64,000 nt of DNA from Argopecten irradians. Lineage: Eukaryota; Mollusca; Bivalvia; Pectinida; Pectinidae. Where the stretch lies: contig NC_091140.1 in the NCBI RefSeq assembly GCF_041381155.1, forward strand, positions 23,402,864 through 23,466,863, written 5' to 3'. The notes beneath the pieces are model-generated. The model worked only from the letters and a program-made list of their open reading frames with translations, did no database searches and was not told the origin of the DNA. Position 1 is the first letter of the stretch. Each line of letters begins with the position of its first letter. The translations under genes were made by a program, and so were the position numbers. Below, one piece after another: positions 12,572-56,278 of this stretch.

Positions 12572-14492
12572 TCATACGTGTCGTCTGCTGGTTTTTATAC
12601 CGTGTCCACCTTGCCCCAGTTGTCCATAGGTTTCCCCACCAAAAGTATGATCGTAATAATCGTTTGAACTGTCTTCCCGACATGCTCCAGTCAGGAAGGT
12701 GTCATACGTGTCACCATTGACGACGGTCCTGGTATGGTCATATATATCAGCTGTATCAGACGGTGCGTTTGGTTTTCCATTTCGGTTCAATCGTCCATAC
12801 GTATTTTCCTGTGTTTTGGAAGTATGGTCATACAGGTCGGGTCCACTCACTTGTTTGATACTACTGTAAAATGAATCATATTCTCCATTGTCCTCCGTGT
12901 GGCTTTCCTTCCTATTGACATGACTATCAACCTCAGAGAAGAAGTTTGGATTTATATGTGGTTTTCCAGTCGTGATACTGTGTAATTCACGAGGTAATTC
13001 AGACCTACAAGTTTCCTTACGTCTACTTTTTCGTACGAGAACAACTATGGTGACCACACTAGCTATCACTATTACCACAAACGTCCCTACTACACCCAGG
13101 ACAGGGCCTATGATATCTGTCTGCTCGTTTGTCTTTGTGTTGCGGGATGCCTGTACTGCTTTATCTGTAGTTGATAGATCCATATACACTGGAGTTCCCA
13201 TCTTTGATACCTTCTTGGTAAGTGAGAATCCGTTATCCGATTGTTTGTTGTAGGTGTAAACATGTCATACGAGATCATTTCTGCTTTGTTTGTCGTATGT
13301 TTCAGCATTTCCTGCGAGGTCAGTTCAGCGTCGTGTACACTTTGGTATTTCGTGCGAGGTCGGTTCAGCGTTTTTTGTTGTACATTTTGGCATTTCGTGC
13401 GAGGCCAGTTCAGCGTTGTTTGTTGTATCTTTCAGCAGTTCCTGTGATGTCACCTAAGCGTTGTTTAATGTGTATTTCGGCATTTCTTGTGAGTTCACAC
13501 CAGGGTTATTTGTTGTATATTTCAGCATTTCCTGTGATGTCACCTCGGCGTTGTCACCTTAACTTGGTTTGTTGTATGTTTAGACACTATATGTGAAGTC
13601 CTTTTCGAGTTAATATCATACCCAACTGTAGTATACCTTGCTTTGGAAAATGATGTAGTCGGTGAATTTGTTGAAACTCTCGTTCCTTTCTTACATAATC
13701 CTGTCAGTTTAGTAGTAGAGGGGCGTGTAACGGGTAAAATTTAAAGTTTTCCAACCGCATCAAATCTTCGAACAGCGACACAATATTGATTTTTACCGCT
13801 TGTCGATTGCGAGGTCCCCAATAGAAGACTTCGAATTCCCTTGGGATGACAACGTTCCATTAACAGGTTCTAAGTAACGTCTTGCACGTCACTCGCCATA
13901 AACCTATCGTTTTGGAAAAGAGAGCATCTTGCAATATTCTGATTTTGACAGAAATGGTATTTACTTATTAATCTGTTGTTTGGTGACTGACTTTGATACC
14001 GACACATACATATTCGCGATGATGTTCTTGACTTTCCACAAAACCTGAGGCCATTAAAACCACATTGGTCTGCTGAACAAGAAAATAATATACCATAAGG
14101 TCTATGTACTAGTAATATCACATTACCATCACAATAGCAAATATCCCCACTACGAAGAATGTGCATGGACCTACAGACACTCTGCTAGACTATAGACCTT
14201 GCACACCGTGTCTTACAGAACCATACACAAATCCAGCAAAATACAACACCCCCTGACGTTCCACATGTGCAGATATAAATCCTGTCACTGTAAGATAGTT
14301 TGTGTCGGTAATGACCAAATGTTGCCACATGGTTCCTGTAAAGGCAGTACCAAGTAGTGAACACGTCCTATTTATATTTGTCCAGGTATAAATATATCCA
14401 TTGGTCTGCTCTATTGTGATGGAGTTGATATTATCGAATATACCGTCAATAATGATCAAAAACACAACTATCAGACTTACCCTTTGGAACAT
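12572..14492 (-). pseudogene. Receptor paralogue A, broken, with intact TM and tyrosine-motif tail
   Basis: Read 5' to 3' on the minus strand. ATG at 14492 begins a signal peptide (MFQRVSLIVVFLIIIDGIF). A lectin-like segment follows (TWTNINRTCSLLGT...GFISAHVERQGVLYF). A Cys-rich module lies at about 14166-13870 (ICYCDGN...CSADQCG...CMCRYQ), then a second lectin-like remnant (FYWG) near 13800. Next come about six degenerate 18-residue stalk repeats of the type NAEVTSQEMLKYTT (13280-13600), and a 209-codon open segment (13201-12572) with a TM helix (GPVLGVVGTFVVIVIASVVTIVVLV) and a cytoplasmic tail. The tail holds three YDHT motifs, two YGxL and several other tyrosines. Breaks: a stop after GVQGL (14190), a frame change before 14166, a stop in the stalk repeats (..NNA*VTSQ) and a frame change near 13210. 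The gene is probably dead, although unrecognised introns could hide some breaks. Confidence 0.7.
13280..13600 (-). repeat. 54-bp stalk-coding repeats of paralogue A
   Basis: About six degenerate copies of a 54-bp unit recur here. On the plus strand the recognisable words are TTTCAGCATTTCCTG and GAGGTCAGTTCAGCGTT. They translate on the minus strand to 18-residue Thr/Asn-rich repeats (TTNNAEVTSQEMLKY), the equivalent of the Ser/Thr-rich stalk of the intact receptors at 34.4 and 54.7 kb. Confidence 0.65.
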
Positions 14493-14790
14493 GTTTACGT
14501 TTTGTTTTTCAAAAGAGATCTGTACACTGTTACATACTTTTACGTTATGGCCTGTTGTTAAAAAAACTTCCGAGAGACCTCTATCTTTACGACACTTCAC
14601 GTGAGCTGTGACAATAGAACGTGATAATTGTACTGACAATGTAACTGATAATAATTTGAAGAACAAGAAAAATGGAATGATGTGTTGGAGAATGTTTCAA
14701 TCATATTGATGTGCACAAGGCCAGTCTACTGTCTAGAAATCAATGCAGCAAACCAGCAAGCACGTGTTAAAAACTGTTAACTGAAAAATA
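14395..14790. repeat. Duplicated 5' flank of receptor copies A and C (copy 1)
   Basis: This stretch matches 18340-18665 closely. Shared landmarks include TGTACACTGTTACATACT, GAGCTGTGACAATAGAACGT, CAAGGCCAGTCTACTGTCT and CACGTGTTAAAAACTGTTAA. It covers the lectin-like start and the upstream DNA of paralogue A, so the duplication included promoter sequence and not only exons. Confidence 0.75.
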
Positions 14791-15665
14791 ATGACTACCA
14801 GCCTCAGAATAAAAGTTTTGATTTTGATGTTGTTGTTTCCCGGAAGGGATATCATGTAATGTAGGTGGAAGCCAGATCTACAATTGTTATTATGTCTACA
14901 TTTTCTAATCACACAAACTATGACAACTACACTAACTATCAAAATCACCACAATTGCCCCCGCGTCACTAATAACGGGGCATAGGATCTTTGTCTTGTCG
15001 TTTTCATAAGTTGTTTGATAGCGTATGGTTATTTACCCAGAAAAAAAACCACATCTCTTTTGACACACTATCCCGTATGGCTCTTCACACTTAACTTTCC
15101 AATAATCTCTTCCCAAAGCATTTTTAAGAGAACATGTTAATATTTGAGGGTAAATATTTCAATGATCTATCGATATTGACCAATAGTCCGTATCGACACA
15201 TACAGTTTGAGAATTGTCCACAAAATAATGGGTGTTCCTCATCACCACATTGTGACGCCAAGCAAGTGGACTGAGAGTCTAACATTGTTAGCACAATAGC
15301 ACACATTTCGATGTAAAACAATATCATTTGATCGACAGAAATAGACACACTCTGGTATTCTGAGATATGATACCCCTAAACAAGACGCTCCAGTTTTAAC
15401 TATTCCAGATGTGCAACCTAAATACTTTAGCGACCCCTCAAGTTTTACATGTGCCGATATCCATCCAGCTTCTCTAATATCGAATGCGTACGAAATGACA
15501 ACCTTATTTTCCTGCATGTTCCCTTTAAGGCCAACACCTAGAAGCAAACACGTCCTGTCACATTCACCCAGGTATCATGATATCCATTTTTATCACATAA
15601 TCCGCCTGATATCCAGTGATATCGCCCGTGTAATAATTTTGCATATGTCACTAGTGTAATATGAC
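14733..15665 (-). pseudogene. Receptor paralogue B, broken fragment
   Basis: From high to low coordinates: a lectin-like piece (DTWVNVT, then RTCLLLGVGLKGNMQENKV, GWISAHVKLEGSLKYLGC) and an RIPECVYFCRSND...HRNVCYC block (15547-15280). A frame change follows, then the Cys module LDSQSTCLASQCGDEEHPLFCGQ (15290-15150). After a gap there is a TM segment (ILCPVISDAGAIVVILIVSVVVIVCVIRK) and the start of a tail (CRSGFHLHYMISLPG, about 15010-14800) that parallels CRSELPRELHSITTGK of copy A. At least two frame changes are seen. There is no signal peptide, and the tail runs out before any YDHT motif. Confidence 0.7.
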
Positions 15666-16747: not shown

Positions 16748-17600
16748 TGCCACAGTCACTATTAATCTCTTTAGTTTACTCAGGACAATAATTGATACTT
16801 TGTATTGGAACATAAAAAAGTATCACGAATTTTAAAGTGTTCCATTTTGGATAGCGTTTGAATTGGGATAGCATCACGTTACGGTATATACACATTGGGT
16901 TTACGACCTTTATACATGTGGACATAACAGTACTTATCGGTATAGGAGACAATCTGTGAAAGCGAAACATGAATACTGTGTCAATATGCGATATAGTTGG
17001 AAGTATATTGGAACGAAATCATACCTTATGTATTAAAGGTATGTTTTTGCAAATGAAATTATATTAAACTCACATGGTATTATAAGTGTACATAACACTT
17101 ACACTATAAGAGTGCAAGAGCACTATTATAACACGAAGACATATCAGGAATATATCACAGCCTTTCAAAGCATACAGACATTCAGACATCGAACACGTTG
17201 TATACCAGAGCGTCTGTCCTTAAGTGACCTTAGCTGTTAATAGGAAAAAAGGCAAAAAACAACCAGTCATCTTCGAAGGGAAATCATCTACTTGTACAGA
17301 CTGGTGTCATGGTCTCCAAGAACTTTTTCCCCAAAAACTGCTTTTAATGATCCTTATTTTTATATTAAGCCAAAACCATTTTGAACACCAGAAAGTTTGT
17401 ATGAAATTTTAATAGGAATGAAATGCAACAGGCTATTAGTTTCACTTTGAAAAATAAAACCCTACAAGAACAATAGGAATGTCAATAGGACATGCTTAAA
17501 AGAGGAGAAAATAGTTTTACAGATGATACATTGTATAGTTTTATTATATTAAAGGAATAAAGAAGTGATACTATTGTTTCTTTCTACGATTTTATATGTA
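16748..17600. repeat. Duplicated block downstream of receptor C (copy 1)
   Basis: This is the partner of 20139-21190. Shared landmarks in order: TGCCACAGTCACTATT, GTGTTCCATTTTGGA, CGACCTTTATACATGTGGAC, GTGTCAATATGCGATATAGT, ACTTACACTATAA, TACTTGTACAGACTGGTGTC, and TTGTTTCTTTCTACGATTTT next to the receptor stop codon. It contains a short SINE-tail relic near 17217-17255 (GACCTTAGCTGTTAATAGGA). The duplication therefore extends past the receptor 3' end. Confidence 0.75.
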
Positions 17601-18430
17601 TGAAGGCTTTTTGGTGACCGGTGTGTTGTAGGTTTAGTTGATTTGATACATATCCCAGGTAAGTTAGTGGAACAGGGTAGTGTTAGTGGTAAAATTCTGT
17701 AAGATATGGTCTTATGAACAGCAACACAATCACTTTCATTATCGCTTGTTAATAAAAGTTTGTTTCCCCAATAAAACACATCTCTGTTGGCGTAGCCATT
17801 CCACTGAAATATCACATTTTGTCCCACACACGTAACATACCAGACATCTTTATTCCTAACCATGTAAAGATAAGAACAATACTTGATATTTGAGGGTAAA
17901 TGGTTCACCGGTTCAGCGATATTGATCAATTGTTTGTATATACACATACAGTTTGATGATTGTCCACAGAACAGTGGTTGTTCCTCATCACCACATTGTG
18001 ACGCCAAGCAAGTGGACTGGGAGTCTAAACTGGTATCACTGGCACAGTAACAAATCTTTCGATGTAAAAGAATATCGCGTGATCCACAGAAGTAAATATA
18101 CTCTGGAATCCTACGGCTCAATACCTCTAAACTGAAAGTTGAATGTCCTACTGTTCTTAATTTGCACCCTAAAAACTCCAGCATCCCCTCTCGTTCAATA
18201 TGTGCTGATATCCACCCTGTTTCTACTATGTTCCCTGCGTTGGAAAGGATCACATGGTGTTGCTGCATGTTTCCCGTAAGGTCAGTACCAACTAGTGAAC
18301 ACGTCCTATTTATATTTGTCCAGGTATCATTACATCCATTGGTCTGCTCTATTGTGATGGAGTTGATACTTGCGAATATACCGTCAATATTTGAGATCTG
18401 TACACTGTTACATACTGTTACGTTATGCCC
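17549..18430 (-). pseudogene. Receptor paralogue C, lacks its signal peptide and TM
   Basis: One frame is open for about 290 codons. It holds a lectin-like segment (NSITIEQTNGCNDTWTNINR, CSLVGTDLTGN, GWISAHIEREGMLEFLGC), RRIPEYIYFCGSRDILLHRK, the Cys module (LDSQSTCLASQCGDEEQPLF, then CGQSSNCMC) and a second lectin-like segment (VWYVTCVGQNVIFQW...VFYWG) closing with PCSTNLPGICIK. It stops at 17549 with no stalk or TM. Against copy A, about 57 bp coding for the initiator Met and most of the signal peptide are deleted at about 18395. The first Met inside the frame (18268) would make a leaderless protein. This is probably a pseudogene, though its long open frame suggests recent loss or use of an upstream leader exon. 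Confidence 0.65.
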
Positions 18431-18665
18431 TGTTTGTTATAAGACTTCCGGGAGACTGCTATCAGTACGACACTTCAAATGAGCTGTGACAATAGAACGT
18501 TATAATTGTATTGACATTGTTACTGATAATAGACGGAAGAAAAAGCAAAATGGAATGATGTGTTGAAGAATGTTTAGATGTGCCCAAGGCCAGTCTACTG
18601 TCTTGATATCAATGCAGGAAACAAGCAAGCACGTGTTAAAAACTGTTAACTGGAAAATAATGTAA
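18340..18665. repeat. Duplicated 5' flank of receptor copies A and C (copy 2)
   Basis: Partner of 14395-14790. It is the same sequence up to GTTAACTGGAAAATAATG. After that point this copy continues into a small inverted-repeat element instead of copy A's sequence. Confidence 0.75.
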
Positions 18666-22000: not shown

Positions 22001-22009
22001 CAGTCCTCG

Positions 22010-34436: not shown

Positions 34437-36527
34437 TTACACATTGTCTGCCTTGGGACTATATATTAGATTGGTAACTTCCTTTGAAACAGTATGAGAA
34501 TGTCCATTCGCTGATTCAGAAAAACCCGCCTTTCCAAACACGACTGTTTTAGAATGAGATGTGCTTCGTTTACGCTTCACATATACTACCGTTGCTACTA
34601 TGATGAGCAGTACCATTCCTCCTGACACCGCACCAGCTATTATCACAGTATCATCCTTCTGACCCTGGCGAGCTTCATTCGTACCACCATTGGCTGGGTT
34701 CACCGTTGTTGTCTCTTCCGTACTTGATTCGTTAGTGGTAGAAACACTTTCGGTAACATTCGACGTCATCACATTATCGATGCCATTTACAGTCTGGTAA
34801 CTGCCATCAGTTGACATAGTCAACGAATCCGTCAACAGAGGCTTGACCGAGGGCGTTGTGTGATTAAGGACAGTTGATGTCTCTTCGTAAGGCACTGTAC
34901 TATGCCGAGTGTTATGCGTTGTCTTACTTGATGGCGAGGCTGTGGTCACTTCGGACGGATATGTTGAAGGTGTTGGTGGCATTCCATTTTCAAATGAAGT
35001 TGTTTCTTCCGATTTCGAATAACTCGTTGTTAACGATTTTGTAGTAGGAGCGACATTAAGCGAATTTGTTACTAATCTAGTTTTGTTGGTATTACTCGGA
35101 GGCGTGGCTGAAATACTCACAATGCTATCATTTTTATAAGCCATTGTTGATGAGGTAGGTTGGGTCGCATTCGAATAAGTTGTTCCTGTATCAGTTGCAC
35201 GGGTGACATTCGGAGACGTTATCACTGCTTCGGTAGTAGTGGTAACAATAGAAGAGGTCGTTACGGGATTCGTGGTATGGGCGATATATTGAGACGTTGT
35301 TGTTTTTGATTCTGTAGTTCTTGTAACATTTGGAATCATTGTTACAGGGTCAGTTGTATGTGTGAACGTCGGAGACGTGGTCAACGTGCCCGTAGTTTGA
35401 GTCACATTCGTAGACGTCTTAACTGAGGCAGTAGAATCGACAATGTTCGATGAAGTTATTGTTACTAATTCCGAAGTAGGTCTTGTATTATTAGTAAACG
35501 CCGTTACTTGGTCGGTAGTATATGCTGTTTGAGGGAGCGGTGTCACCGCGTCAGTAGCATCTGTTCCATTCGTGGACGTTATAACTTGGTCAGTAATTTT
35601 CGAAGAGGTTGTCGCTGATACAGCATCTGTAGTTATAATTTTTGGAGATGTTGTAACTGATCCAGAAGTTTGGGTAACCTTTGTAGACGTTGTAACTAAG
35701 TCACTTGTGTGGGTAACTTTCTGAGAGTTTGTTACTGATTCTGTAATTCTAGAAGCAATGGAAGGAGTTTGTGTTGATACAGTGGTAGTTATGGTGATTG
35801 GAGACGTTGTCACTGGTTCAACAGTGCTGGTAACACTAGTGGACGTAGTTCCTTTTTCAGAAAACTGAAAATCACTCGAAGACGTTTTTATTGTTCCGGT
35901 TGTATTCGTAATGGCATTCGTGGGTTCCGTATGGATGGTAGATGGATAAACAGGACAGATAGACGATATACTCGTTTCATGTCCCTTGGATTGCAACGCA
36001 CATTTGGCATATACAGCTAAAGATGAATGTGCGATGTCCGAATTAACTTTATACTTGGAAACATCTGTACCGTTGTCTGGTACTAAACCGTAGAATGTAT
36101 CTGTCCAGAAGACAAAGTTACCGGTGTAATTAAATAAAATCACATTTACCCGAGCGATATGCATATGACGCGATTCACATGTTTGTACAGCATCTATCCA
36201 AGTTTTATTTTCGTCCGCGTAGATTTGAAACTTATTTTGACTGTCAAAGCAAATAAAAGGATATGATTCGTTACAAGGCCTTACCTCGTGTTTTGCTTTA
36301 TTCACATCCATAACCTGACAACCAAGTTTTCTCTCAGGATCGGAGTGCTCAGCGCAAATGCATGTCAGATTGTTAAAGGAACGAAAACTACCACATTTAC
36401 TGATGGGGCAACGGAATTGCCTGCAATGCGAATCAACATTTGGCTCCAATTTGCACGTTTCCTCCACTCCGTATATCAAATAAGTGTTTAGAAGAAATAT
36501 AGTCACAAATAGGAATAAATTCATCAT
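34437..36527 (-). CDS. Mucin-stalk type I receptor, lectin-like head, short tail
   Basis: Single exon, 696 aa, starting at ATG 36527. Signal peptide 1-20 (MMNLFLFVTIFLLNTYLIYG). A Cys-rich N-terminal module (25-70; CRQFRCPISKCGSF...NLTCIC) is followed by RPCNESYPFIC and a divergent C-type-lectin-like segment (about 97-192; TWIDAVQTCESRHMHIARVN, FWTDTFYG, C176, C191). A Ser/Thr-rich stalk runs about 196-625, built of degenerate 13-17-residue repeats such as VTTSPNVTRTTE, with many N-glycosylation sites. A TM helix (about 628-650; VIIAGAVSGGMVLLIIVATV) precedes a 46-residue basic tail with one tyrosine (NLIYSPKADNV). Calcium-binding lectin motifs (EPN, QPD, WND) were not seen. It is a paralogue of the gene at 54689. 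Probably a cell-surface mucin-like receptor; ligand unknown. Confidence 0.85.
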   Translation of the reverse strand: MMNLFLFVTIFLLNTYLIYGVEETCKLEPNVDSHCRQFRCPISKCGSFRSFNNLTCICAEHSDPERKLGCQVMDVNKAKHEVRPCNESYPFICFDSQNKFQIYADENKTWIDAVQTCESRHMHIARVNVILFNYTGNFVFWTDTFYGLVPDNGTDVSKYKVNSDIAHSSLAVYAKCALQSKGHETSISSICPVYPSTIHTEPTNAITNTTGTIKTSSSDFQFSEKGTTSTSVTSTVEPVTTSPITITTTVSTQTPSIASRITESVTNSQKVTHTSDLVTTSTKVTQTSGSVTTSPKIITTDAVSATTSSKITDQVITSTNGTDATDAVTPLPQTAYTTDQVTAFTNNTRPTSELVTITSSNIVDSTASVKTSTNVTQTTGTLTTSPTFTHTTDPVTMIPNVTRTTESKTTTSQYIAHTTNPVTTSSIVTTTTEAVITSPNVTRATDTGTTYSNATQPTSSTMAYKNDSIVSISATPPSNTNKTRLVTNSLNVAPTTKSLTTSYSKSEETTSFENGMPPTPSTYPSEVTTASPSSKTTHNTRHSTVPYEETSTVLNHTTPSVKPLLTDSLTMSTDGSYQTVNGIDNVMTSNVTESVSTTNESSTEETTTVNPANGGTNEARQGQKDDTVIIAGAVSGGMVLLIIVATVVYVKRKRSTSHSKTVVFGKAGFSESANGHSHTVSKEVTNLIYSPKADNV

Positions 36528-36607
36528 ATTTTGCCGATCTTTTAGTTCACAATTCCCACCAGCAGGTTCATTCCCATGTGCATGTCACACCATATGCAGT
36601 CAAAATG

Positions 36608-41028: not shown

Positions 41029-41040
41029 TACGTCACTTCC
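41029..41040 (-). promoter_or_regulatory. Overlapping ETS and CRE site, unit 1
   Basis: On the minus strand GGAAGTGACGTA joins an ETS core and a CRE half, a composite common in TATA-less animal promoters. The same site recurs at 49041-49052. No transcript start or exon could be tied to it, so this is a weak call. Confidence 0.25.
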
Positions 41041-41425: not shown

Positions 41426-41549
41426 GCATCCCAGAGGTGGAGGGCTTGTGGTAATATTTCGGGATATCTTAACCACTCTGCTACTCCGCGGTGGCCGAGT
41501 GGTTAAGATGTCCCGACAAATTACCACAAGCCCTCCACCTCTGGGATGC
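41426..41549. repeat. Head-to-head SINE inverted repeat, unit 1
   Basis: GCATCCCAGAGGTGGAGGGC ... CCGCGG is followed at once by its inverse CCGCGGTGGCCGAGTGG ... CTCTGGGATGC. Arms of about 62-65 bp have a handful of mismatches and no spacer. The left arm is a truncated minus-strand copy of the tRNA-like SINE head. Confidence 0.8.
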
Positions 41550-41703
41550 GGGTTGAATCCCATGTGGGGCAGTTGCCAGGTACTGACCGCTGACCGGTGG
41601 TTTTTCTCCGGGTACTCCGGCTTTCCTCCACCAACAAACCTGGCACGTCCTTACATGACCCTGGCTGTTAATAGGACGTAAAACTAAACAAACAAACAAA
41701 CAA
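41487..41703 (+). mobile_element. tRNA-derived SINE, unit 1
   Basis: The head resembles a type II tRNA (GTGGCCGAGTGGTTAAG A box; GGGTTGAATCCCA B box with one base missing). The body has CTGACCGGTGGTTTTTCTCC, CCGGCTTTCCTCCACCAAC and CATGACCCTGGCTGTTAATA, and the tail is (AAAC)n. The layout matches tRNA-SINEs widespread in molluscs; it may belong to the V-SINE/RUDI group, but I could not verify that. Confidence 0.8.
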
Positions 41704-42616
41704 TCATTGTTATTTCCTAATCTTGAAATCGTATTTCTCCCGAGAGTCAAATGTTACTAACAGAACATTAACTCTATATGTTAGTAATAATAGAATGCGG
41801 AATATCAGTAATAAATTATCATGAAGTGATTAATTAGAGATCAACGCAATCCGGTGGTTATACATTATGCACGCCGCCATATAAATAGATTACCAAGTTA
41901 TTGGGAAATGTTTTTGTCAAGAAGTAACAAGAACTTGCAGTAATTATTTATCAATTGTTGTAACTTTAAAAGTGTTTCATAAAAAATGATGATTGAAAAA
42001 AATGTTCATTTTGTTGTTCCGATATTGCTTGATTTTAAGTATTTTAATTTGTTCGACTATTATCCAAAATCGCAATGTTTGTGACTTGATTGTCATAATT
42101 GTTTATGGTGAATTGCAACAACAAAGCTGAGAATGCTCGCTCTTCCAGAACAGTTCTTTTCTCTTGAGTTTTTAGAATAATCATCACTGTTTTACATGGA
42201 ATATGTGATCAGATTACGGATATGTTATCATTTTTCAATCATTTTGTATTTTCCGATTCTTAAACATTTCAGAGATAAAGAGGCATATAATTTATTATGT
42301 GAAACCCCATTGGATTATAGGTAATGTTGAAGACCTCGATTCTTAAATCCCTCTTCTTAAACCTCTCATTTCTTCCTAATCTTATAGGCGTATTTCTAAT
42401 CATGTAGGAATCTAAAATTGAAGTTTCATTACAAAGATTGTTTATCTAAAACGTCAGGAAAATGTGGAGAATACCAAACCAAAAGTAAAAAAAATAGACC
42501 GTCATATTCTATCTATCGAACACAAAACGAAATCTGGTCGAATAACTTTTATAAATTGAAATGCAAGTAAAATTTGAACTTTGTCTCTATATAAACCAGT
42601 AGAAATCCGGCTCCGA

Positions 42617-42776
42617 TGTGACGTTTTCTTCTACTGAGCCTATCATGCGATGTCATATATAGATTATGACGTCAAAACTACACGTAACATAGTAGTGTTA
42701 TTATACGTACGCGTATGTCTTACGATACATATGACCTGGTCGTATGACATGGACGGACGGGCCATGTGATAAATAA
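42617..42776. repeat. CRE-rich module, copy 2
   Basis: Homologous to 18819-18990. It contains TTATGACGTCAAAACTACAC, AGTGTTATTATACG, GTATGTCT and GACGGGCCATGTGATAAAT. Confidence 0.5.
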
Positions 42777-45700
42777 TGTTGTCCAGGTCAATGCTCTCAT
42801 GGTTGATTATGAATTTCAAAAGTGAAAATGCTCATGAAAGATACTTAACCTTAGGTGACAAAGATATCAATTTGAAAGATGGGAGATTGAGCTGAAGACG
42901 TTTTTTCTCTGGTATCATATGAGAACCAACACTTCAGTCCTATAAGTGAAATTAATTCGGCAGTTTTAATGGCACATAAAACACATTTAACACTGTGGTC
43001 CATGAATCATTTAGTTTGTAATCTCCTAAGCCATATTGTCTTAGATAATATGACACAACATACTAATTACAAACGCAGTTACAGTTGAGAAAATGGAAAA
43101 TATTTACTTTAACCAAACTTGCATTTATTTCTTATTTCCATATAAAAGGGGAAATCGTAATGGAAAACAATCGGAAAATATTTCAGTACCCAGCATTATG
43201 TATATAAGGAACAATACCAATCAAAGCTTTGTTTAATCGAATACCTGAAAATGTTTATATACACTTCCTCGTGTCTAGATAACGCAGATACCCTGGAATG
43301 TTAGCAACGTTTAGCTAAACAGTGAAATACGTGTACAGGTGTATTATTTCTGACAAATAAACAAATTCGTATTGGACTTTAGTTGTCAATTTATTTCATT
43401 TTATGCAAACATAACAAAACATCAATAAATACAGCATATACAGCATTAATTATTTCACCAATTCCGTTAACCATCTTGAAATGAAACCTGTCTGTGTAGC
43501 TGATTTCAATGGTGGAATGACACTAGACGAATTATTCGACTGACTGTAAAGATGAGTTCAGAGAAACAAGATGTATTTCCTTCTCTGACATAGAAATTTT
43601 ATTGTTATACAAATAATTCTGCTTGATTGACATTCAGGGCTAATTTTTGTTCAAAAGATGATAATAAGCTTAAAATTTAAAACAGAAAATTATTTCTGGA
43701 ACTTCATGAAATTTTATGAAAATTATGATGTACAATGTAATTACTTCTTTGTCTTCTTCCTTATTATTGAAAAGATATATTCACATGATTTGAAGCAAAT
43801 GAACAATGCAAATTCTATTAAGTGATTAAGCTAATAATCTTTAAACAGCCAGGCTACATATTCCGTATCTTGAAAGTCGGTAAATCAACAAAAAAATATA
43901 TAAATATTTTGTGGATATATAGAAATATAATGTATATAAAACATGGTTTTATCAGGACCCCAAAATTCATAAGGATCCTCGTAAAACAGATTAATCAGTG
44001 ATTTGAGTCGTTGATAAAAAGAACGGTCTCAGATGTTTTCTATTGTTTGTAATCTTGGGTTTTATTTCTATTGAATGTTGTTGTAAATCATGCCCTGTGT
44101 TTACTCATTTGTGTTCGGTTTTGTAGTTATAAAGGTGTTTATCAAATGAAGTTCTTAGAATACTAAATATGTTATCGACAAATTCTCCTTAAAAGGAACG
44201 ACAATACAGAGAATTTAGTATCGACCATTTGCATCCTTATTTACTTTAAAAAAAACCATCAACATGGACAATATGCATTTCATTTTCATGACAAGCCCTT
44301 TCAATTTCCACACCTTTACTTTTCCATATTTAGAGAGTGGCATTCCTTCATCGTTGTCAGAAATCTCGGTTTTGTTAAAACTATTGAATTTTATAAGAAA
44401 TTATGACTACTTAAGGGGACACAAACTATCTATACGATCACAAAGGATATAGTTAAAAAGACTACGGTAAAGTTTTATGGCTGATGATCTCATAAAACAA
44501 CTGTTTCCTTTTGTAATGCGAGGTCAGTTGTGTTCAATTAATCCTAATACTGCAAACAAATAACATATTTTTGTGGGGATGTATATACATGATTTAGAGT
44601 GATATACTTTTACCGTACGTACACTTGACACTTTTTGCAGTTTGCAGTGATTGTTTTTAGTATTTCTATTTGCCTCCAAAATATCTTGGCTTTAATCGCA
44701 CGCAAAAATGACTTGACTTACAATATCTGCATATGTCCATTATCACTTATACAATATAAGTATAGGTAATTACTGGAGTGAATCCCACGTGAAAGACGCT
44801 CACTCTTCCGGAGCCTATGTCTTATGGTTCTTTTTCTTTTCTCTTCCGTTTATATCTGTACTTGTGGTCATTTTGTGTACAGTAGTTCTTAAATCGACAT
44901 CAAGTTAGGATTAAAGTTTTGTCATGATATTGGTACGCTTTGTGATCGGCCAACATTTTCCTTTTTTCTCTCTTTCGCTTATGTTCATCTATCTATTTAT
45001 TATATTATTAACTTATTTTTCATATAGGACATACATGAATATTTTAGACACCATATTTAATCATTCCTCTTAAGCCACCACCCTTTTCATCTCCTTACTC
45101 CCCTTTACCTCATTCTCCCTTTTCATTCATTTTCTCTCTTTTTTCTACCCTCCCATTCACATTAATAATATTAAAAAAACAATGTAGAGAAAAACGGAAG
45201 AGAATGGAAGAAAATTGGAGATATGTAAATTACATGCATATGTAGCTAATGTATTTTTTGAAACATTTTTTGAAAAATAGAAATTAAAAAAAAAAAATTT
45301 GCATTAGAGCTTTTTACATTAAATAGTTAAGCTCGCAAACAAAGCTGACAGAAAAATCGATTTATATCAGAGCAATTCTTAATGTAATTGTTAAAAACTG
45401 AAAAACAACTACGATACTATTTTCTATGAAATTCTTCACCGTTGTATCAGATTTATCATTAGACGCACAGACAACAAAGAATTTCAATTTTGGATTTATG
45501 GTCACAGCTTTAATGAATATATACATATGGCGGCACGGTCTGTCAATAGACTATAATGGCACGCCATCAAACAAATTCAATCAAAATTGCAAAACAAATT
45601 AATTGATAGATTCTGGGAAACAGTAAGCCACCAATCAATATGGCCGCCGCTCCATCAATAGACCATAATGGCAAGCCATCAATCAAATAAATTGATTTAT

Positions 45701-47176
45701 TCCGGGAAACCATCATCAATCAATTAAACAATAAATTCAATCAATCAATCAATCAATCAATCAGATGTCATTCAATAATGATCAGTGATACTGTGAAACA
45801 GATATCAACTGATTCACGTCAATATAAACAGCATATATAATCAATATGATGTCAATCAATCGATGTAAATCATAAATATGTACCGCAAAATCTGCAACAC
45901 CAGAAACCGCACGGAAAATTCTGTTACTAACACAAAGTCCAATGAGTTGTGGAGTAGTCTTTTGATAAAAACAGTAGAACCATGGGCAATGTCCAGTAGC
46001 CGTGACGATCCTGCTTTCTACTACCATAGCTGAAACACAAAAAAGAAAACAACAGCAGAAACAAAAACCAACAGTGGGAGGGATTTCAGGGAGGGTGAAG
46101 AAATTGAGTGTTTAAACCAACCAATATTTTTTTCATATAAACTTTGCCTCTATCAAAGCTGTCGTTGTACCAAGTTGTCTTCATTTAAAAGGGGGAATAA
46201 CTCGTCAGCAATAACTTTTTAGGTATCACGTTACCATATCAACAGGTACCCTCCGATAACCGGACTATATGTTTTATTGCCATTAGTGCTATAATATTAA
46301 CAATATACGTTAATAGTGATGATACCATATTTTCAGCCCAATAAAATAATCGCTGCATACGAATGATAACATATCAATCGGTGTTGTTTTTCTGTCTAAT
46401 TTATACAGAGTAGTCAATAAATTGTTATCCTCAATAGCCAATAAAAATAGAAATGGGTTGTAGTTATAAAGTAAGTAATCATACATTAATGAGGACCATG
46501 GTGTTTGTCAGCGATATCGAAAACAATATAGGCACATATAGCTTTCTGTATGATACATGACTTGCAAATAAGAATGTCTCGTGGATTAGCCTAAACCTAT
46601 GACAATGACTTGTCACATGTTTGATTTCAAACAAGTGTGAACAAGACACTAGTATAGGATTGTCAATAAAGAATATCATCCCAGACAGTAGATGATATAT
46701 GTATATAAGACGTGTGAAATATTTACCTCATCGATCAATATAATGTAACGTTTATTGACGAAATTCTGCATAACACAATATAATAGCTATAGTATCACTG
46801 AAAAGACTGTGGGAGATTGATGTACATATCCAAAATGAAAATCCTACCTTATCTACAGCATGGTGAATAAAATCCTTGTTTGGTCGATACATACGGGAGG
46901 TGCGATTGAAGTTTATATTAACACCACTTCTAAACGACCCCAATATGCATGGAATTGCATTATATATGCCATACTCACGTGATAAATTTATTGCAAATTC
47001 GTAAATGATGAAAGCAATACAGGATTGACTAGACAGGTCGTTATAAATCATGACCTTATAATTCAATCTTGCATCAAAAAGCATTTTCATTGGCCTTACA
47101 ATTTATATCATCTTATGACGTAAGTAATGACGTCACCATTTGTAACGCCGTCTGATTGACTGCAACATTACAACGG

Positions 47177-47427
47177 CACAATGATTTCATAGTTACATCA
47201 ATGCTTATGATTATTTTTCAGACAACATGAAATGCATTTAAACGTATTATTCCACTGATTTTCCAATGAATTAGTTTTTTTTCTAAATACACAACGTCGA
47301 CGTCTCTATTGTGACGTAATAATAACGCGAAGTTTTCGCGTTATTCTCGGATTTTTTCTTAATAGTAGTGTGAAAAAAGTATCTGCTAATCAGAAAGCCG
47401 GATTTAGTATAAAAACAAACAAAAAAA
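47177..47427 (-). repeat. Interspersed repeat R2, copy 3 (in unit 2)
   Basis: The duplicate of 39165-39415, carried along by the 8-kb duplication. Confidence 0.6.
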
Positions 47428-49437
47428 TATAATATAATAATTATACGCGATTGATCTATTGTCATAATATAACTATTTACAAATCACTGAGGAATCAAAA
47501 GAAAGGAGGGGTTAGATCAATATATATACACACACGATAGGATATCTGAAAGCGATTAGTTAAACTAGTCTAGAAATATGCTTGTAAAATTGAGCTCTAT
47601 GAAACTGAGTATCGAGTATAATCGAAATTCAGAAATGAGAGAGAAAAATGTTGTTTATTCTATAACACAACACAAGCTGTATACATTTCAACAGACAGAC
47701 ATGTGACTTACTCTCTTGCGTATCCCAGTAACTAAGATATACAATGAATACACTGTGTCAGCAATCAAAACTATTGTAACGGCCAAGTGGTATGACCAGA
47801 ACCACTATCATCCAGGTAGCGTATATGACTGTACATAGGTTGGGTATCAATCTGATTGATACCAAGTCCTTAAGGGCTTCACTAATGGTTAATGAATCTG
47901 TCAGTCAAGTCTGTCATTTGTCATGCTTCAGTCACTGTGATATTCATCAGGAATCTTCTTCAGCACAGCATCAGCAGCAGTAATAAATATTCTGGAACCA
48001 TACAGTCTTATTGTCTTTGTCAATGTCTATTATACCAAAATCTGGAGAGTTATCCGCCCTTGGACCATTAGGGTTAACCATATTCTATTAACAAACTTTA
48101 GATTAGTATGACATTTCACTATACTCATACACCATAATCACTGTCACCGAGACTGTGATTCCTAATCAAATACAACCAAGAGTGATATAAAGTTAAATAA
48201 TTTAATTATAGTAATATCTGATTTATTTACAAGTACATAAGTATGACCCTATCACTCTCTTTCATCTTCCATACACTCACTACTTAACCTACTATGATAT
48301 TTACAATGAAAATCTTTACAATAAATAAATAAATAATCCATATGTATTAGGAAAAACATATGAACCTTAAATACAGCAATTTCCAGTGGTACTAACAAAA
48401 ATGGTGAAAAATACTAAAACCCATGAATAAAATCTTATCCCTATAAGATCTCTATATAAATTCTCATTACTTTTCTCCAACATTTTACCTCTAATCCTTA
48501 TATAATTACAGAATCCCATCCCCCATGATGATTCCCCATGGGAAATCCTCTCGAAAATTGCGATAAACACTAAGTCCTAAACTAAGAAAAACTATGAAAA
48601 ATTCCCATAAAATATCCCTAAAATTCCCCACAAATAACATTTAATAGACAACAAGTACATACAAGACGAGACAGCCGCATTGGGATCGAGGAAACACCTC
48701 TTACGTCCCTAACGGAAAGGTTACACGGAGACATGTTACATAACGTACACCCACCTAGAGCTTCCGTAGTAGAAGTAACCCCCTACCCAGATCTAACGAT
48801 ACTTTTGCAGGAGCGTTGCTGGAACACCATAGTTACCGCGTGCGGTTATTCCGCTGCTGGATTCTGTCGGAAAATGTTGTATACAACAATGACAACATTT
48901 ATAAAAGTAAGAGATACAAACCTATTACAATATACGAAATTAATTACCACTCAAATACATGCCGTACGTACTTCTAAAACTCCATTACACGCACTCGTGC
49001 AAAAATAGTAACTTTTATATTTACAATATCACTTGCGTACTACGTCACTTCCGTTCCCACGCTTACATACACAGAAGACTCTCCATGCTGCTTGTACCAT
49101 ACTGTCACTCCGGTGCACGCATACTACTGTGAATTTATAACTTAATACGGGTATAAACCATATATAATCATATCATCTTACATGTGCAAATGGTTAATAC
49201 GATCTTATCTGTATATCTAATCAACAATCCCTAACTATCGTAAACTCTCTCACCTCATTCGTCCATTCTCACAGGGCCCACTCGTCACACTATTATGGTG
49301 ATTAATTGGGGCACTATTGAAGGAAGTCTATGAAAGACTGAAATGAATGATGAACCCTTGATTCTCATAAACTTGAAAGAGATTATAGGAATTCGTTATT
49401 GATAAGACGTATTCAAATACTTGGCGTACTGCTCGTT

Positions 49438-49561
49438 GCATCCCAGAGGTGGAGGGCTTGTGGTAATATTTCGGGATATCTTAACCACTCTGCTACTCCG
49501 CGGTGGCCGAGTGGTTAAGATGTCCCGACAAATTACCACAAGCCCTCCACCTCTGGGATGC
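49438..49561. repeat. Head-to-head SINE inverted repeat, unit 2
   Basis: Same hairpin as 41426-41549, present at the equivalent place, so the inverted structure predates the 8-kb duplication. Confidence 0.8.
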
Positions 49562-49715
49562 GGGTTCGAATCCCATGTGGGGCAGTTGCCAGGTACTGAC
49601 CGCTGACCGGTGGTTTTTCTCCGGGTACTCCGGCTTTCCTCCACCAACAAACCTGGCACGTCCTTACATGACCCTGGCTGTTAATAGGACGTAAAACTAA
49701 ACAAACAAACAAACA
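49499..49715 (+). mobile_element. tRNA-derived SINE, unit 2
   Basis: As 41487-41703, but the B box is intact (GGGTTCGAATCCCA) where unit 1 lacks one base. So this copy keeps an apparently usable internal polymerase III promoter, and the base loss in unit 1 happened after the duplication. Confidence 0.8.
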
Positions 49716-50630
49716 ATCATTGTTATTTCCTAATCTTGAAATCGTATTTCTCCCGAGAGTCAAATGTTACTAACAGAACATTAACTCTATATGTTAGTAA
49801 TAATAGAATGCGGAATATCAGTAATAAATTATCATGAAGTGATGTATTAGAGATCAACGCAATCCGGTGGTTATACATTATGCACGCCGCCATATAAATA
49901 GATTACCAAGTTATTGGGAAATGTTTTTGTCAAGAAGTAACAAGAACTTGCAGTAATTATTTATCAATTGTTGTAACTTTAAAAGTGTTTCATAAAAAAT
50001 GATGATTGAAAAAAATGTTCATTTTGTTGTTCCGATATTGCTTGATTTTAAGTATTTTAATTTGTTCGACTATTATCCAAAATCGCAATGTTTGTGACTT
50101 GATTGTCATAATTGTTTATTGTGAATTGCAACAACAAAGCTGAGAATGCTCGCTCTTCCAGAACAGTTCTTTTCTCTTGAGTTTTTAGAATAATCATCAC
50201 TGTTTTACATGGAATATGTGATCAGATTACGGATATGTTATCATTTTTCAATCATTTTGTATTTTCCGATTCTTAAACATTTCAGAGATAAAGAGGCATA
50301 TAATTTATTATGTGAAACCCCATTGGATTATAGGTAATGTTGAAGACCTCGATTCTTAAATCCCTCTTCTTAAACCTCTCATTTCTTCCTAATCTTATAG
50401 GCGTATTTCTAATCATGTAGGAATCTAAAATTGAAGTTTCATTACAAAGATTGTTTATCTAAAACGTCAGGAAAATGTGGAGAATACCAAACCAAAAGTA
50501 AAAAAAAATAGACCGTCATATTCTATCTATCGAACACAAAACGAAATCTGGTCGAATAACTTTTATAAATTGAAATGTAAGTAAAATTTGAACTTTGTCT
50601 CTATATAAACCAGTAGAAATCCGGCTCCGA

Positions 50631-50790
50631 TGTGACGTTTTCTTCTACTGAGCCTATCATGCGATGTCATATATAGATTATGACGTCAAAACTACACGTA
50701 ACATAGTAGTGTTATTATACGTACGCGTATGTCTTACGATACATATGACCTGGCCGTATGACATGGACGGACGGGCCATGTGATAAATAA
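50631..50790. repeat. CRE-rich module, copy 3 (in unit 2)
   Basis: The duplicate of 42617-42776, with a few substitutions. Confidence 0.5.
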
Positions 50791-53415
50791 TGTTGTCCGG
50801 GTCAATGCTCTCATGGTTGATTATGAATTTCAAAAGTGAAAATGCTCATGAAAGATACTTAACCTTAGGTGACAAAGATATCAATTTGAAAGATGGGAGA
50901 TTGAGCTGAAGACGTTTTTTCTCTGGTATCATATGAGAACCAACACTTCAGTCCTATAAGTGAAATTAATTCGGCAGTTTTAATGGCACATAAAACACAT
51001 TTAACACTGTGGTCCATGAATCATTTAGTTTGTAATCTCCTAAGCCATATTGTCTTAGATAATATGACACAACATACTAATTACAAACGCAGTTACAGTT
51101 GAGAAAATGGAAAATATTTACTTTAACCAAACTTGCATTTATTTCTTATTTCCATATAAAAGGGGAAATCGTAATGGAAAACAATCGGAAAATATTTCAG
51201 TACCCAGCATTATGTATATAAGGAACAATACCAATCATAGCTTTGTTTAATCGAATACCTGAAAATGTTTATATACACTTCCTCGTGTCTAGATAACGCA
51301 GATACCCTGGAATGTTAGCAACGTTTAGCTAAACAGTGAAATACGTGTACAGGTGTATTATTTCTGACAAATAAACAAATTCGTATTGGGCTTTAGTTGT
51401 CAATTTATTTCATTTTATGCAAAAATAACAAAACATCAATAAATAAAGCATATACAGCATTAATTATTTCACCCATTCCGTTAACCATCTTGAAATGAAA
51501 CATGTCTGTGTAGCTGATTTCAATGGTGGAATGACACTAGACGAATTATTCGACTGACTGTAAAGATGAGTTCAGAGAAACAAGATGTATTTCCTTCTCT
51601 GACATAGAAATTTTATTGTTATACAAATAATTCTGCTTGATTGACATTCAGGGCTAATTTTTGTTCAAAAGATGATAATAAGCTTAAAATTTAAAACAGA
51701 AAATTATTTCTGGAACTTCATGAAATTTTATGAAAATTATGATGTACAATGTAATTACTTCTTTGTCTTCTTCCTTATTATTGAAAAGATATATTCACAT
51801 GATTTGAAGCAAATGAACAATGCAAATTCTATTAAGTGATTAAGCTAATAATCTTTAAACAGCCAGGCTACATATTCCGTATCTTGAAAGTCGGTAAATC
51901 AACAAAAAATATATAAATATTTTGTGGATATATAGAAATATAATGTATATAAAACATGGTTTTATCAGCACCCCAAACTTCATAAGGATCCTCATAAAAC
52001 AGATTAATCAGTGATTTGAGTCGTTGATAAAAAGAACGGTCTCAGATTTTTTCTATTGTTTGTAATCTGGGGTTTTATTTCTATTGAATGTTGTTGTAAA
52101 TCATGCCCTGTGTTTACTCATTTGTGTTCGGTTTTGTAGTTATAAAGGTGTTTATCAAATGAAGTTCTTAGAATACTAAATATGTTATCGACAAATTCTC
52201 CTTAAAAGGAACGACAATACAGAGAATTTAGTATCGACCATTTGCATCCTGATTTACTTAAAAAAACATGGACAATATGCATTTCATTTTCATGACAAGC
52301 CCTTTCAATTTCCACACCTTTACTTTTCCATATTTAGAGAGTGGCATTCCTTCATCGTTGTCAGAAATCTCGGTTTTGTTAAAACTATTGAATTTTATAA
52401 GAAATTATGACTACTTAAGGGGACACAAACTATCTATACGATCACAAAGGATATAGTTAAAAAGACTACGGTAAAGTTTTATGGCTGATGATATCATAAA
52501 ACAACTGTTTCCTTTTGTAACGCGAGGTCAGTTGTGTTCAATTAATCCTAATACTGCAAACAAATAACATATTTTTGTGGGGATGTATATACATGATTTA
52601 GAGTGATATACTTTTACCGTACGTACACTTGACACTTTTTGCAGGTTGCAGTGATTGTTTTTAGTATTTCTATTTGCCTCCAAAATATCTTGGCTTTAAT
52701 CGCACGCAAAAATGACTTGACTTACAATATCTGCATATGTCCATTATCACTTATACAATATAAATATAGGTAATTACTGGAGTGAATCCCACGTGAAAGA
52801 CGCTCACTCTTCCGGAGCCTATGTCTTATGGTTCTTTTTCTTTTCTCTTCCGTTTATATCTGTACTTGTGGTCATTTTGTGTACAGTAGTTCTTAAATCG
52901 ACATCAAGTTAGGATTAAGGTTTTGTCATTATATTGGTACGCTTTGTGATCGGCCAACATTTCCTTTTTCTCTCTTTCGCTTATGTTCATCTATCTATTT
53001 ATTATATTATTAATTTATTTTTCATATAGGACATACATGAATATTTTAGACACCATATTTAATTATTCCTCTTAAGCCACCACCCTTTTCATCTCCTTAC
53101 TCCCCTTTACCTCATTCCCCCTTTTCATTCATTTTCTCTCTTTTTTTCTACCCTCCCATTCACATTAATAATATTAAAAAAAACAATGTAGAGAAAAATG
53201 GAAGAGAATGGAAGAAAATTGGAGATATATAAATTACATGCATATGTAGCTAATGTATTTTTTGAAACATTTTTTGAAAAATAGAAATTAAAAAAAAAAT
53301 TTGCATTAGAGCTTTTTACATTAAATAGTTAAGCTCGCAAACAAAGCTGACAGAAAATCGATTTATATCAGAGCAATTCTTAATGTAATTGTTAAAAACT
53401 GAAAAACAACTACGA

Positions 53416-54599: not shown

Positions 54600-54688
54600 T
54601 TTTCAACCTTGACCTAACATGCATTCTAAAAAGAAAGGAATGTTAAAATTTAATAGCCTAAGCCATCTGAATACTAATATAAGTTATT

Positions 54689-56278
54689 TCACAAATATTC
54701 ATCCCGAGTACAACCATTTATATGGAATGAACTGTATTCGTCCGAATCAGGCCGCGCGATGTCGTCTTTTTGATGGAGTTGTCCATATATCCCGTCATTC
54801 AAAGCTCCCGCGTGATCGTAAACATCGCCGTCTGTGTTGACGGGTTTCTGGTGAAGAACGCCATAAGACGCAGACGAGTAATCCTGAATATCTAGTCGTG
54901 TTGTTTTATCTTGGCTCTCCGAAACAGTGCATTTTTCAGCTCTTTTGTTTTCGAAAAAGTCGTATTTTCTTTCGTCGTCAGACTCTGGGTCTGCACCGCC
55001 GTCATCTTGTTCATGTGTCGTTGGTAAGTATATAGGCTTTTGAAATTGGTCATCCTTACGTGGCTTACCTCTTAATGACTTGTCCATATAGCCATTGATA
55101 CCAGAAGTTCGAATGACGTTCTTTTCCAGGCCCTTCTTTCGGCTATACCTTACATACACTACAGCAGCTCCTATAATAATCAATACCACTCCACCGGAAA
55201 CAGCCCCCGCTATCACCGCAGTATTGTCCTTATGATCCTGGCTAGCTTCGTTCGTACCGGCTGGGATTGAAGTTGGTTTGGGGTTCGTCACGTTTTTTAA
55301 TTTAGTCTCATTAATTAGTCTTTCAGATGATGTTGTAGCAACAGTAGAATCATTTACAGTCGATGTTGTTAAATGCATTGTACTAGTCATTGTAGAAGTT
55401 TTTGCATCACTATGTAAGGAATCTGCAGTTTGAGTGTACTCATTCGACGCTGGTGATATACGAGTCGTTATCACTGAAGACAGTTTTGTTGCTATGGTAT
55501 TCACTGTGGTTGTATTTGCAGATGTCGCTGTTGCTGTCGTACTTTCCGTTTGGCTGATGTTATGGTATTCTGTGGTGTTGATTTCTAAAGACATAGTTCC
55601 ATTTATATCAAGTTGCTGGGATGTTGTGACTGACTCAGTAGAAGGGGTTGATAGTGACGGACAAACTGGTGAGGTAGGCGCCTGGAATTCCTTGAACTCC
55701 ATTTCACATTTTACAGTTATTGGTGGAACTGCACTTGCTTCGGATTTAGTTTGTGTTATTTGATTTTGCGATACGTCGGTAACGTATTCCGACGTAAAAC
55801 CATAGAATACTCCCGTCCAAAACAAAGCGTCACTGGAATAGTTTATTGTAGCATTATTAGTTTGAGCAATATGCAGATTACGTGTCTCGCAGGTTTCCAC
55901 TGCATCTGCCCATGTCATATTCTCCTCGTCATATATTTGAAAATTGTTGTGTCGATCTTCACATATAAAAGGATGATATTCATTACATGGCCTTACCTCA
56001 TTCGCGTCAGGAAATCCTGATAACTTTATCAGCTGACAGCCAACTGTTACATTGTGCTGTACTTCACAACCACAAGTCAAGTTGTATGAAAATGTAAAAT
56101 CACCACACTTGTTGTCAGGACATCGAAATCTCGTACAGTTTAAATCGTGGTCTTGTTCGTACACACATGTATCAGTATTACCCGATACCAGATAAACAAA
56201 AGAACTAAGAAGGAAAATGATCAAATATGCAGCCATTTTCCACCATGCAAATCTCTCCGTCAGTAGCATGTATCTCAC
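54689..56278 (-). CDS. Type I receptor, lectin-like head, long tyrosine-motif tail
   Basis: Single exon, 529 codons from 56278. The better start is probably Met15 (56236): it gives a clean signal peptide (MAAYLIIFLLSSFVYLVSG), a good AAAATGG context, and the same distances to the first Cys and to the conserved promoter block as in the paralogue at 34437. From the 56278 numbering: a Cys module (38-81; CTRFRCPDNKCGDF, NLTCGC), then RPCNEYHPFIC, a divergent lectin-like segment (about 112-206; TWADAVETCETRNLHIAQTN, FWTGVFYG), a Ser/Thr stalk of only about 140 residues, a TM helix (about 353-376; AVIAGAVSGGVVLIIIGAAV) and a 153-residue tail. The tail has 10 or more tyrosines, including SYGVL, VYDHAG, IYGQL and EYSSF, plausible SH2-docking sites if phosphorylated. 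Likely a signalling cell-surface receptor; ligand unknown. Confidence 0.88.
   Translation of the reverse strand: MRYMLLTERFAWWKMAAYLIIFLLSSFVYLVSGNTDTCVYEQDHDLNCTRFRCPDNKCGDFTFSYNLTCGCEVQHNVTVGCQLIKLSGFPDANEVRPCNEYHPFICEDRHNNFQIYDEENMTWADAVETCETRNLHIAQTNNATINYSSDALFWTGVFYGFTSEYVTDVSQNQITQTKSEASAVPPITVKCEMEFKEFQAPTSPVCPSLSTPSTESVTTSQQLDINGTMSLEINTTEYHNISQTESTTATATSANTTTVNTIATKLSSVITTRISPASNEYTQTADSLHSDAKTSTMTSTMHLTTSTVNDSTVATTSSERLINETKLKNVTNPKPTSIPAGTNEASQDHKDNTAVIAGAVSGGVVLIIIGAAVVYVRYSRKKGLEKNVIRTSGINGYMDKSLRGKPRKDDQFQKPIYLPTTHEQDDGGADPESDDERKYDFFENKRAEKCTVSESQDKTTRLDIQDYSSASYGVLHQKPVNTDGDVYDHAGALNDGIYGQLHQKDDIARPDSDEYSSFHINGCTRDEYL

What the first reader, a model, noticed from the sequence alone, without database searches (positions are those of the whole stretch)
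12572..56278. Receptor cluster sharing a two-tyrosine cytoplasmic module
Paralogue A's tail repeats the pattern Y-D-H-T, 5 to 8 residues, then Y-(G/D)-x-(L/F) three times (YDHTSKTQENTYGRL, YDHTRTVVNGDTYDTF, YDHTFGGETYGQL). The intact gene at 54689 has it once (YDHAGALNDGIYGQL) plus SYGVL and EYSSF. The spacing recalls an ITAM, but the first half is YDH(T/A) rather than YxxL, so this is not a canonical ITAM or ITIM. A module kept in tails while ectodomains diverge suggests a conserved docking site.
Basis: partly seen in the sequence, partly recalled or inferred. Interest (0 to 1): 0.78.

Follow-up and report, generated by a model that had tools for sequence, protein, structure and literature searches.

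The report
Repeated paired-tyrosine motif in receptor tails
In this animal genome, many cell-surface receptors on different chromosomes share an inner tail built from alternating YDHT and YxxL/F tyrosine motifs kept by selection, which looks like a home-grown version of the phosphotyrosine switches used by immune receptors, though no binding partner has been shown.

Summary
The motif strings are real and not chance: 4 in the window, 0 in 60 simulated windows. Paralogue A, with three, is a broken copy; the 54689 gene is intact; a third receptor gene (34437) shares its ectodomain type but lacks the motif. The finding reaches beyond the window: of 37 tails collected genome-wide by similarity, 29 carry the module, on nine contigs, in 12 of 14 groups. 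A TM helix was seen upstream in 23 of 29. YDHT-type tyrosines are followed directly by YxxΦ-type ones 31 times of 37; 0 of 10,000 shuffles reach this. Motif codons change less at the protein level than the rest of the tail in three families. Spacing is loose (3-20, mode 8); canonical ITAM, hemITAM, ITIM and NPxY are mostly absent. The genome holds SHP-2 and CSK SH2 sequence and collinear Syk-like pieces. Best reading: a multi-site phosphotyrosine docking tail working like ITAM/hemITAM receptors, as reviews report for oyster lectins recruiting Syk. Phosphorylation and partners are inferred.

The parts
12572..13264 (-). Paralogue A: open frame with TM helix and tail carrying three modules; end of a degenerate gene copy
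13037..13093 (-). TM helix of paralogue A (core)
   Evidence: hydropathy on the identical locus L009, ORF residues 58-76
12788..12832 (-). Module YDHT-x7-YGRL
12695..12742 (-). Module YDHT-x8-YDTF
12617..12655 (-). Module YDHT-x5-YGQL
12433..12576 (-). Out-of-frame remnant, with a stop, of a fourth module and of the tail end that array relatives keep (approximate limits)
   Evidence: compared with L011-L014
13666..14555 (-). Degenerate ectodomain of paralogue A (stops and frame changes)
   Evidence: tblastn; frames
14874..15559 (-). Remnant of a further array copy (ectodomain pieces and TM piece; no module seen)
17549..18436 (-). Ectodomain-only open frame of the same array family, no TM or tail in frame
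34437..36584 (-). Receptor gene: signal peptide, cysteine-rich ectodomain, Ser/Thr-rich stalk, TM (all by eye), short tail WITHOUT the module
54689..56281 (-). Intact receptor gene (first Met at 56236): signal peptide, ectodomain with weak C-type-lectin match, Ser/Thr-rich stalk, TM, tyrosine tail
55151..55216 (-). TM helix of the intact gene (by eye from the translation)
54854..54868 (-). SYGVL (YxxL site)
54776..54820 (-). Module YDHA-x7-YGQL
54725..54739 (-). EYSSF (YxxF site)

Best explanation
The tails are multi-site phosphotyrosine docking platforms. Each unit couples a first tyrosine, D-D-(V/M/I)-Y-(D/S)-H-(T/A), with a second one, Y-(D/G)-x-(L/F), a loose stretch later. When the ectodomain is clustered, a Src-family kinase would phosphorylate both tyrosines (inferred from acidic residues before and D/G after the tyrosine, a preference recalled, not tested). 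SH2 proteins would then bind: most likely the tandem-SH2 kinase Syk, across the pair or by the YxxL/F half alone, with SHP-2 as counter-reader. The receptor would thus work like an ITAM/hemITAM receptor with a non-canonical first half. Shown here: motif, alternation, TM adjacency, selective constraint, and SHP-2, CSK and Syk-like SH2 sequence in the genome. Inferred: phosphorylation, reader, cell type, outcome.
For: Recurrence: 29 of 37 collected tails carry at least one module, on contigs C2, C4, C6, C7, C8, C9, C11, C13, C16. A forward tail query gave 22 matches (itself and a near copy included; 11 at E<=0.01), its exact reverse gave 1, at E 2.84. First-type followed by second-type tyrosine: 31, against 15.8 expected, 0 of 10,000 shuffles. 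TM helix in the same frame in 11 of 29 (the 54689 gene by eye). For the 18 tails on their own exon, a strict TM-KR-GT scan found an upstream TM exon in 8; antisense 0 of 19, window tiles 2 of 80; 4 more by eye. Constraint, pN of motif blocks v rest of tail: 0.034 v 0.177 (1 of 5000 random block sets as low), 0.051 v 0.183 (154 of 5000), 0.086 v 0.320 (15 of 5000). Readers: SHP-2, CSK, four pieces collinear with human SYK tandem SH2 at C6:6151418-6154655. [quoted passage not shown]
Against: The +3 residue of the first half is mostly T/A, not L/I, so it does not fit the Syk SH2 ligand as I recall it. Spacing of 3-20 residues is wider than an ITAM; five units in L033 have only 3 residues between YDHT and the next Y. 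Seven short-tailed array copies and the 34437 gene do without the module. Cross-family matches are weak: half of the 22 have E above 0.01, one tail found only itself and a near copy, and the L023 tail found, outside its own place and the C7/C13 array, only three matches at E 0.9-5.6. No expression, phosphorylation or binding data. The tails were found by similarity to one another, so composition counts are not an unbiased sample. Six of 29 loci show no TM in the DNA held. The Syk reading rests on positions and E-values only (1.2e-9, 1.4e-4, 0.0029, 0.0155); two of the four pieces hold a stop inside the match, and the letters could not be fetched.
Confidence: 0.55

Rival explanations
1. Inhibitory tails: the YxxL/F halves work like ITIM/ITSM sites that recruit SHP-2, so the long-tailed receptors restrain blood cells and the short-tailed copies are their activating or decoy partners.
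For: An SHP-2-like tandem SH2 is encoded. Long- and short-tailed copies sit in one array with related ectodomains. Six of 37 tails hold an ITIM-type match.
Against: At -2 the second tyrosines mostly have N, G or D (45 of 69), not I/V/L/S. Of the 7 ITIM-type matches, 5 lie outside the YDHT units (by eye). Short-tailed copies show no charged residue in the TM by eye, so adaptor pairing is not indicated.
Confidence: 0.17
2. Trafficking tails: Y-x-x-L/F sites are unphosphorylated endocytic signals read by the AP-2 adaptor, and repeats tune uptake of ligand.
For: The second-type sites fit YxxΦ by definition; 69 such tyrosines in 14 representative tails. That AP-2 reads YxxΦ is recalled.
Against: The first-type YDHT site has no bulky +3 residue yet recurs as an alternating partner and belongs to the constrained codons. 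AP-2 motifs need not occur in pairs.
Confidence: 0.13
3. Descent and repeat expansion: tails look alike only because one tail was duplicated and its repeats multiply by slippage, with little function in the motif itself.
For: L033 holds five near-identical in-frame 66-base units. Near-identical copies are dispersed on C2, C9 and C16, with a closer relative on C11. Tail synonymous divergence is below that of the ectodomain for L012 v L014, as under exchange between copies. In two of the three tested families pS is also lower in the motif blocks (0.186 v 0.352; 0.408 v 0.619).
Against: pN/pS is lower in the motif blocks than in the rest of the tail in all three families: 0.09 v 0.58, 0.27 v 0.52, 0.21 v 0.52. 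Spacers diverge while the tyrosines stay.
Confidence: 0.1

Closest known systems
Oyster CgCLec-TM1 and CgCLec-HTM (C-type lectins with hemITAM; Syk-ERK-GSK3b or Syk-ERK-Rel, IL-17)
   Same: Membrane receptors of a bivalve with a tyrosine tail; one ectodomain here has a weak C-type-lectin match
   Different: Reviewed as bearing a hemITAM; here up to eight paired units with a YDHT half. Their tail letters were not seen (review passages only; one search listed no original paper)
ITAM receptors, and Draper/MEGF10
   Same: Paired tyrosines in tails, spacing often near an ITAM (mode 8 between the halves), Src-type kinase and tandem-SH2 reader expected; MEGF10/Draper precedent from passages of PMC8092387
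   Different: First half is Y-(D/S)-H-(T/A), not YxxL/I; spacing 3-20; no NPxY in 37 tails; no EGF or EMI domain matched in the ectodomains scanned
hemITAM receptors (Dectin-1, CLEC-2 type; motif form recalled)
   Same: YxxL sites after acidic residues; 54689 has NDGIYGQL
   Different: Acidic-G-(x)-YxxL/I form in 1 of 37 tails; here sites are paired and repeated
Botryllus fester co-receptors (ITIM, hemITAM and a core YxxI/L/V motif of unknown function)
   Same: Invertebrate multigene receptors with several tyrosine motifs in long tails (passages)
   Different: Ig and sushi ectodomains; no YDHT half mentioned in the passages seen

Membership tests
ITAM | YxxL/I-x(6-12)-YxxL/I | tested here: not met
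   1 of 37 tails (L042)
ITAM | Two tyrosines acting as one unit | tested here: inconclusive
   Order alternates far above shuffles, but joint action is not testable here and spacing is loose
ITAM | Phosphorylated pair binds Syk/ZAP-70 tandem SH2 | not testable with these tools
   Only Syk-like pieces in the genome
ITIM | (I/V/L/S)xYxx(L/V/I) | tested here: not met
   6 of 37 tails hold any match; N/G/D prevail at -2
hemITAM | Acidic-G-(x)-YxxL/I, single | tested here: not met
   1 of 37 tails, the 54689 gene
Draper/MEGF10/CED-1 | NPxY in tail | tested here: not met
   0 of 37
Draper/MEGF10/CED-1 | EMI and EGF-like ectodomain | tested here: not met
   No such Pfam match in the window proteins, the 8 members of A1, L042, L037, L023, L014; ectodomains of the C2, C4, C6, C8, C9, C11 and C16 tails were not seen
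C-type lectin receptor | Lectin_C domain above Pfam cut-off | tested here: inconclusive
   54689 gene 18.6 bits, cut-off 22.6; no match in 8 array-type members; AlphaFold models unusable, mean pLDDT 35.8 and 31.6
Oyster CgCLec-HTM/TM1 type | Tail recruits Syk and drives ERK | not testable with these tools
   Literature passages only

The most novel reading that the evidence does not exclude
A separate phosphotyrosine docking code: the alternating D-D-x-Y-(D/S)-H-(T/A) / Y-(D/G)-x-(L/F) unit is a receptor signalling module carried by several otherwise unrelated receptor families of this animal lineage, read by SH2 domains that accept His at +2 and Thr at +3, and multiplied or lost to tune signal strength among tandem receptor copies.
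Probability: 0.35. Interest if true: 0.78.

Novelty: new variant of a known kind. Interest (0 to 1): 0.62.

Why it matters
Invertebrate immune receptors are usually judged by vertebrate motifs. A lineage-specific tail module, recognisable by pattern and placed after TM helices, would give a direct way to pick out signalling receptors among expanded ectodomain genes, and a defined peptide set to find their SH2 readers.

Tried and rejected
Rejected: the idea that YDHT alone is informative. Of 8 loci (two overlapping) fetched for the 12-base word TATGATCACACA, 0 show a receptor tail; the word is also frequent in a repeat array. Rejected: a fixed ITAM spacing. Rejected as evidence: the reverse of the C4 9.9 Mb tail, because its forward query also matched only itself and a near copy; replaced. 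Rejected as proof: the Fisher test on H at +2, circular because the tails were found by similarity.

Led nowhere: AlphaFold of two ectodomains; profiles of the receptor families against solved structures, only weak matches, E 0.083 or worse; NCBIfam; a first TM-exon scan whose donor rule was wrong (1 of 19), corrected; Lectin_C positions genome-wide (150 scored of 497 candidates), where by eye none lies directly upstream of a tail exon. Papers, listings only: the string YDHT (30 of 55 listed, none by title or abstract start on a receptor tail); nothing on this module in the listings; no paper. The word WSC for the middle of the array ectodomain was my eye only, is not supported by Pfam and is not claimed.

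Rows set aside: L070 (my frame choice missed its module) was left out of the grouping and of the 29 but stays among the 37; L016 and L017 (stops in the match) were not used; the 7 short-tailed copies stay in the 37; the alternation and residue counts use the longest member of each of 14 groups. In one search the motif blocks of the C4/C9 family include one YGYG block that my regex took in.
Full report
What was checked. The four quoted strings are present on the minus strand at 12617-12832 and 54776-54820. Under a first-order Markov model of the window, the strict pattern occurred 0 times in 60 simulated windows, against 4 observed. The window lies at C7:23402864-23466863 of an 845.8 Mb genome. 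The species name was not available and the mollusc label was not tested. A C1q-domain frame, two reverse-transcriptase frames and a Tc5-type transposase DNA-binding frame sit in the same window.

State of the window genes. The 54689 gene is one open frame of 530 codons that by eye holds a signal peptide, a cysteine-rich ectodomain, a Ser/Thr-rich stalk, a TM helix and the tail. Its ectodomain has a sub-threshold C-type-lectin match, E 0.0032, 18.6 bits against a cut-off of 22.6. The 34437 gene is its paralogue (41% identity) but has a short tail without the module, and the three frames of 33801-34560 show none. Paralogue A belongs to another family. Its ectodomain is broken by stops and frame changes, and its tail ends before a fourth module that relatives L011-L014 keep in frame.

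Beyond the window. Tail and whole-protein queries found relatives by similarity. The paralogue A family is a tandem array around C7:23.15-23.42 Mb with a copy on C13. More remote tails lie on C2, C4, C6, C8, C9, C11, C16 and elsewhere on C7. I collected 37 tails, the two window tails included. Of these, 29 carry at least one module, 7 are short-tailed array copies without it, and for L070 my frame choice failed. At 60% identity, 36 of the tails (L070 left out) form 14 groups; 12 of the 14 contain a module. The richest, L033, has eight units, five of them in-frame 66-base repeats.

Strength of the links and controls. The best cross-family query gave 22 matches, itself and a near copy included, 11 of them at E 0.01 or better; its exact reverse gave one at E 2.84. 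Other queries linked less. The C4 9.9 Mb tail found only itself and a near copy, which also makes its reverse control uninformative. The L023 tail found, outside its own place and the C7/C13 array, only three matches at E 0.886, 3.1 and 5.64.

Where the module sits. In 11 of 29 module-bearing loci a TM helix lies in the same open frame, before the tail (for 54689 by eye). In the other 18 the tail is an exon of its own. A strict scan for a hydrophobic stretch ending in two basic residues at a splice donor found an upstream TM exon in 8 of these 18 (8 of 19 scanned, L070 included), in 0 of 19 on the antisense strand and in 2 of 80 window tiles. Four more (L045, L067, L068, L069) show such an exon by eye (three of them under other locus numbers for the same places). 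For six (L044, L055, L034, L066, L032, L062) no TM was seen in the 1.5 kb held. So a TM was seen in 23 of 29. Enrichment against a proteome of random proteins could not be measured.

Is it a two-tyrosine unit? In one representative of each of the 14 groups there are 37 tyrosines of the Y-x-H-(T/A/S/V) type and 69 of the YxxΦ type. A first-type tyrosine is followed directly by a second-type one 31 times, against 15.8 on average when order is shuffled within tails; 0 of 10,000 shuffles reach 31. Repeats within a tail, in L033 above all, are not independent, so the figure overstates the evidence somewhat. The gap between the halves is 3-20 residues, most often 8 (11 of 31). Around the first type, D or E fills -2 in 31 of 37; D is at +1 in 26 and T at +3 in 25. 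H at +2 is part of the definition, and the tails were found by similarity, so these counts describe the set and do not prove enrichment.

Selection. Motif blocks were defined on one sequence and tested by Nei-Gojobori counts. In the array (L011, L013, L014, L015, the defining L012 left out), pN is 0.034 in motif blocks and 0.177 in the rest of the tail, with pS 0.364 and 0.306; 1 of 5000 random block sets is as low. In the C4/C9 family (5 sequences) pN is 0.051 v 0.183 (154 of 5000) and pS 0.186 v 0.352. In the C11/C9 family (3 sequences) pN is 0.086 v 0.320 (15 of 5000) and pS 0.408 v 0.619. In these two families pS is lower too and the defining sequence is included, which favours the motif; pN/pS is still lower in the motif blocks (0.27 v 0.52 and 0.21 v 0.52; array 0.09 v 0.58). 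For L012 v L014 ectodomain pS is 0.673 and tail pS 0.37-0.39, so the likeness of tails is partly exchange or homogenisation, not selection alone.

Readers in the genome. An SH2 search gave 52 matches. Two pieces at C1:28.48 Mb match SHP-2 best and one at C10:25.45 Mb matches CSK best. Others look by eye like PLC-gamma, p85, RASA1, NCK and ABL. Two of them hold a stop inside the match, as where a match runs past an exon end, or in a broken gene. This suggests a Syk gene but does not prove one; the letters could not be fetched.

Mechanism. The pattern fits a phosphotyrosine docking tail. [quoted passage not shown]). For MEGF10 and Draper a third review names Src-family kinases as writers, Syk-family readers, and the SHP-2 orthologue Corkscrew as eraser for Draper (passages of PMC8092387). 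By analogy the modules here would be written by Src-family kinases and read by Syk, with SHP-2 opposing. The steps from phosphorylation onward are inference.

Membership. Canonical ITAM 1 of 37 tails, hemITAM form 1 of 37, any ITIM match 6 of 37, NPxY 0 of 37. So these are not filed as ITAM, ITIM, hemITAM or Draper receptors, though they may work like ITAM receptors. On print: a search of the held open-access library for the string YDHT listed 30 of 55 papers, none by title or abstract start on a receptor tail; the listings showed nothing on this module, and searches found no paper. Only listings were seen for these, and most subscription papers are not held.

Noticed in passing
window 37433-45414 and 45416-53415: Head-to-tail duplication of about 8 kb, 98.7% identical, between the 34437 and 54689 genes; content unidentified, one 128-codon frame with no Pfam match.
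   Followed up: partly
L012, L014, L042, window 34437 and 54689: These receptor genes read from signal peptide to stop in one open frame, while the C4, C11 and C9 relatives have split TM and tail exons: possible retrocopy origin of the C7 genes.
   Followed up: no
G000:C7:23.29-23.37 Mb (L019, L020, L022, L024, L025, L029, L030): Short-tailed copies in the same array as long-tailed ones with related ectodomains, reminiscent of paired receptor clusters.
   Followed up: partly
L033: Two in-frame repeat arrays in one tail: a SKDTKNSGRR-type unit and the 66-base YDHT unit.
   Followed up: partly
G000:C1:72.937-72.946 Mb: Dense run of the word TATGATCACACA, often at spacings near 62 bases, probably a satellite.
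   Followed up: no
window 9534-10187: Tandem repeat region shown by many overlapping self-matches.
   Followed up: no
window 2129-2611: C1q-domain frame, E 4.6e-16.
   Followed up: no
L002 (G000:C1:10.27 Mb): 765-codon frame resembling a zinc-finger helicase of the ZNFX1 kind (by eye).
   Followed up: no
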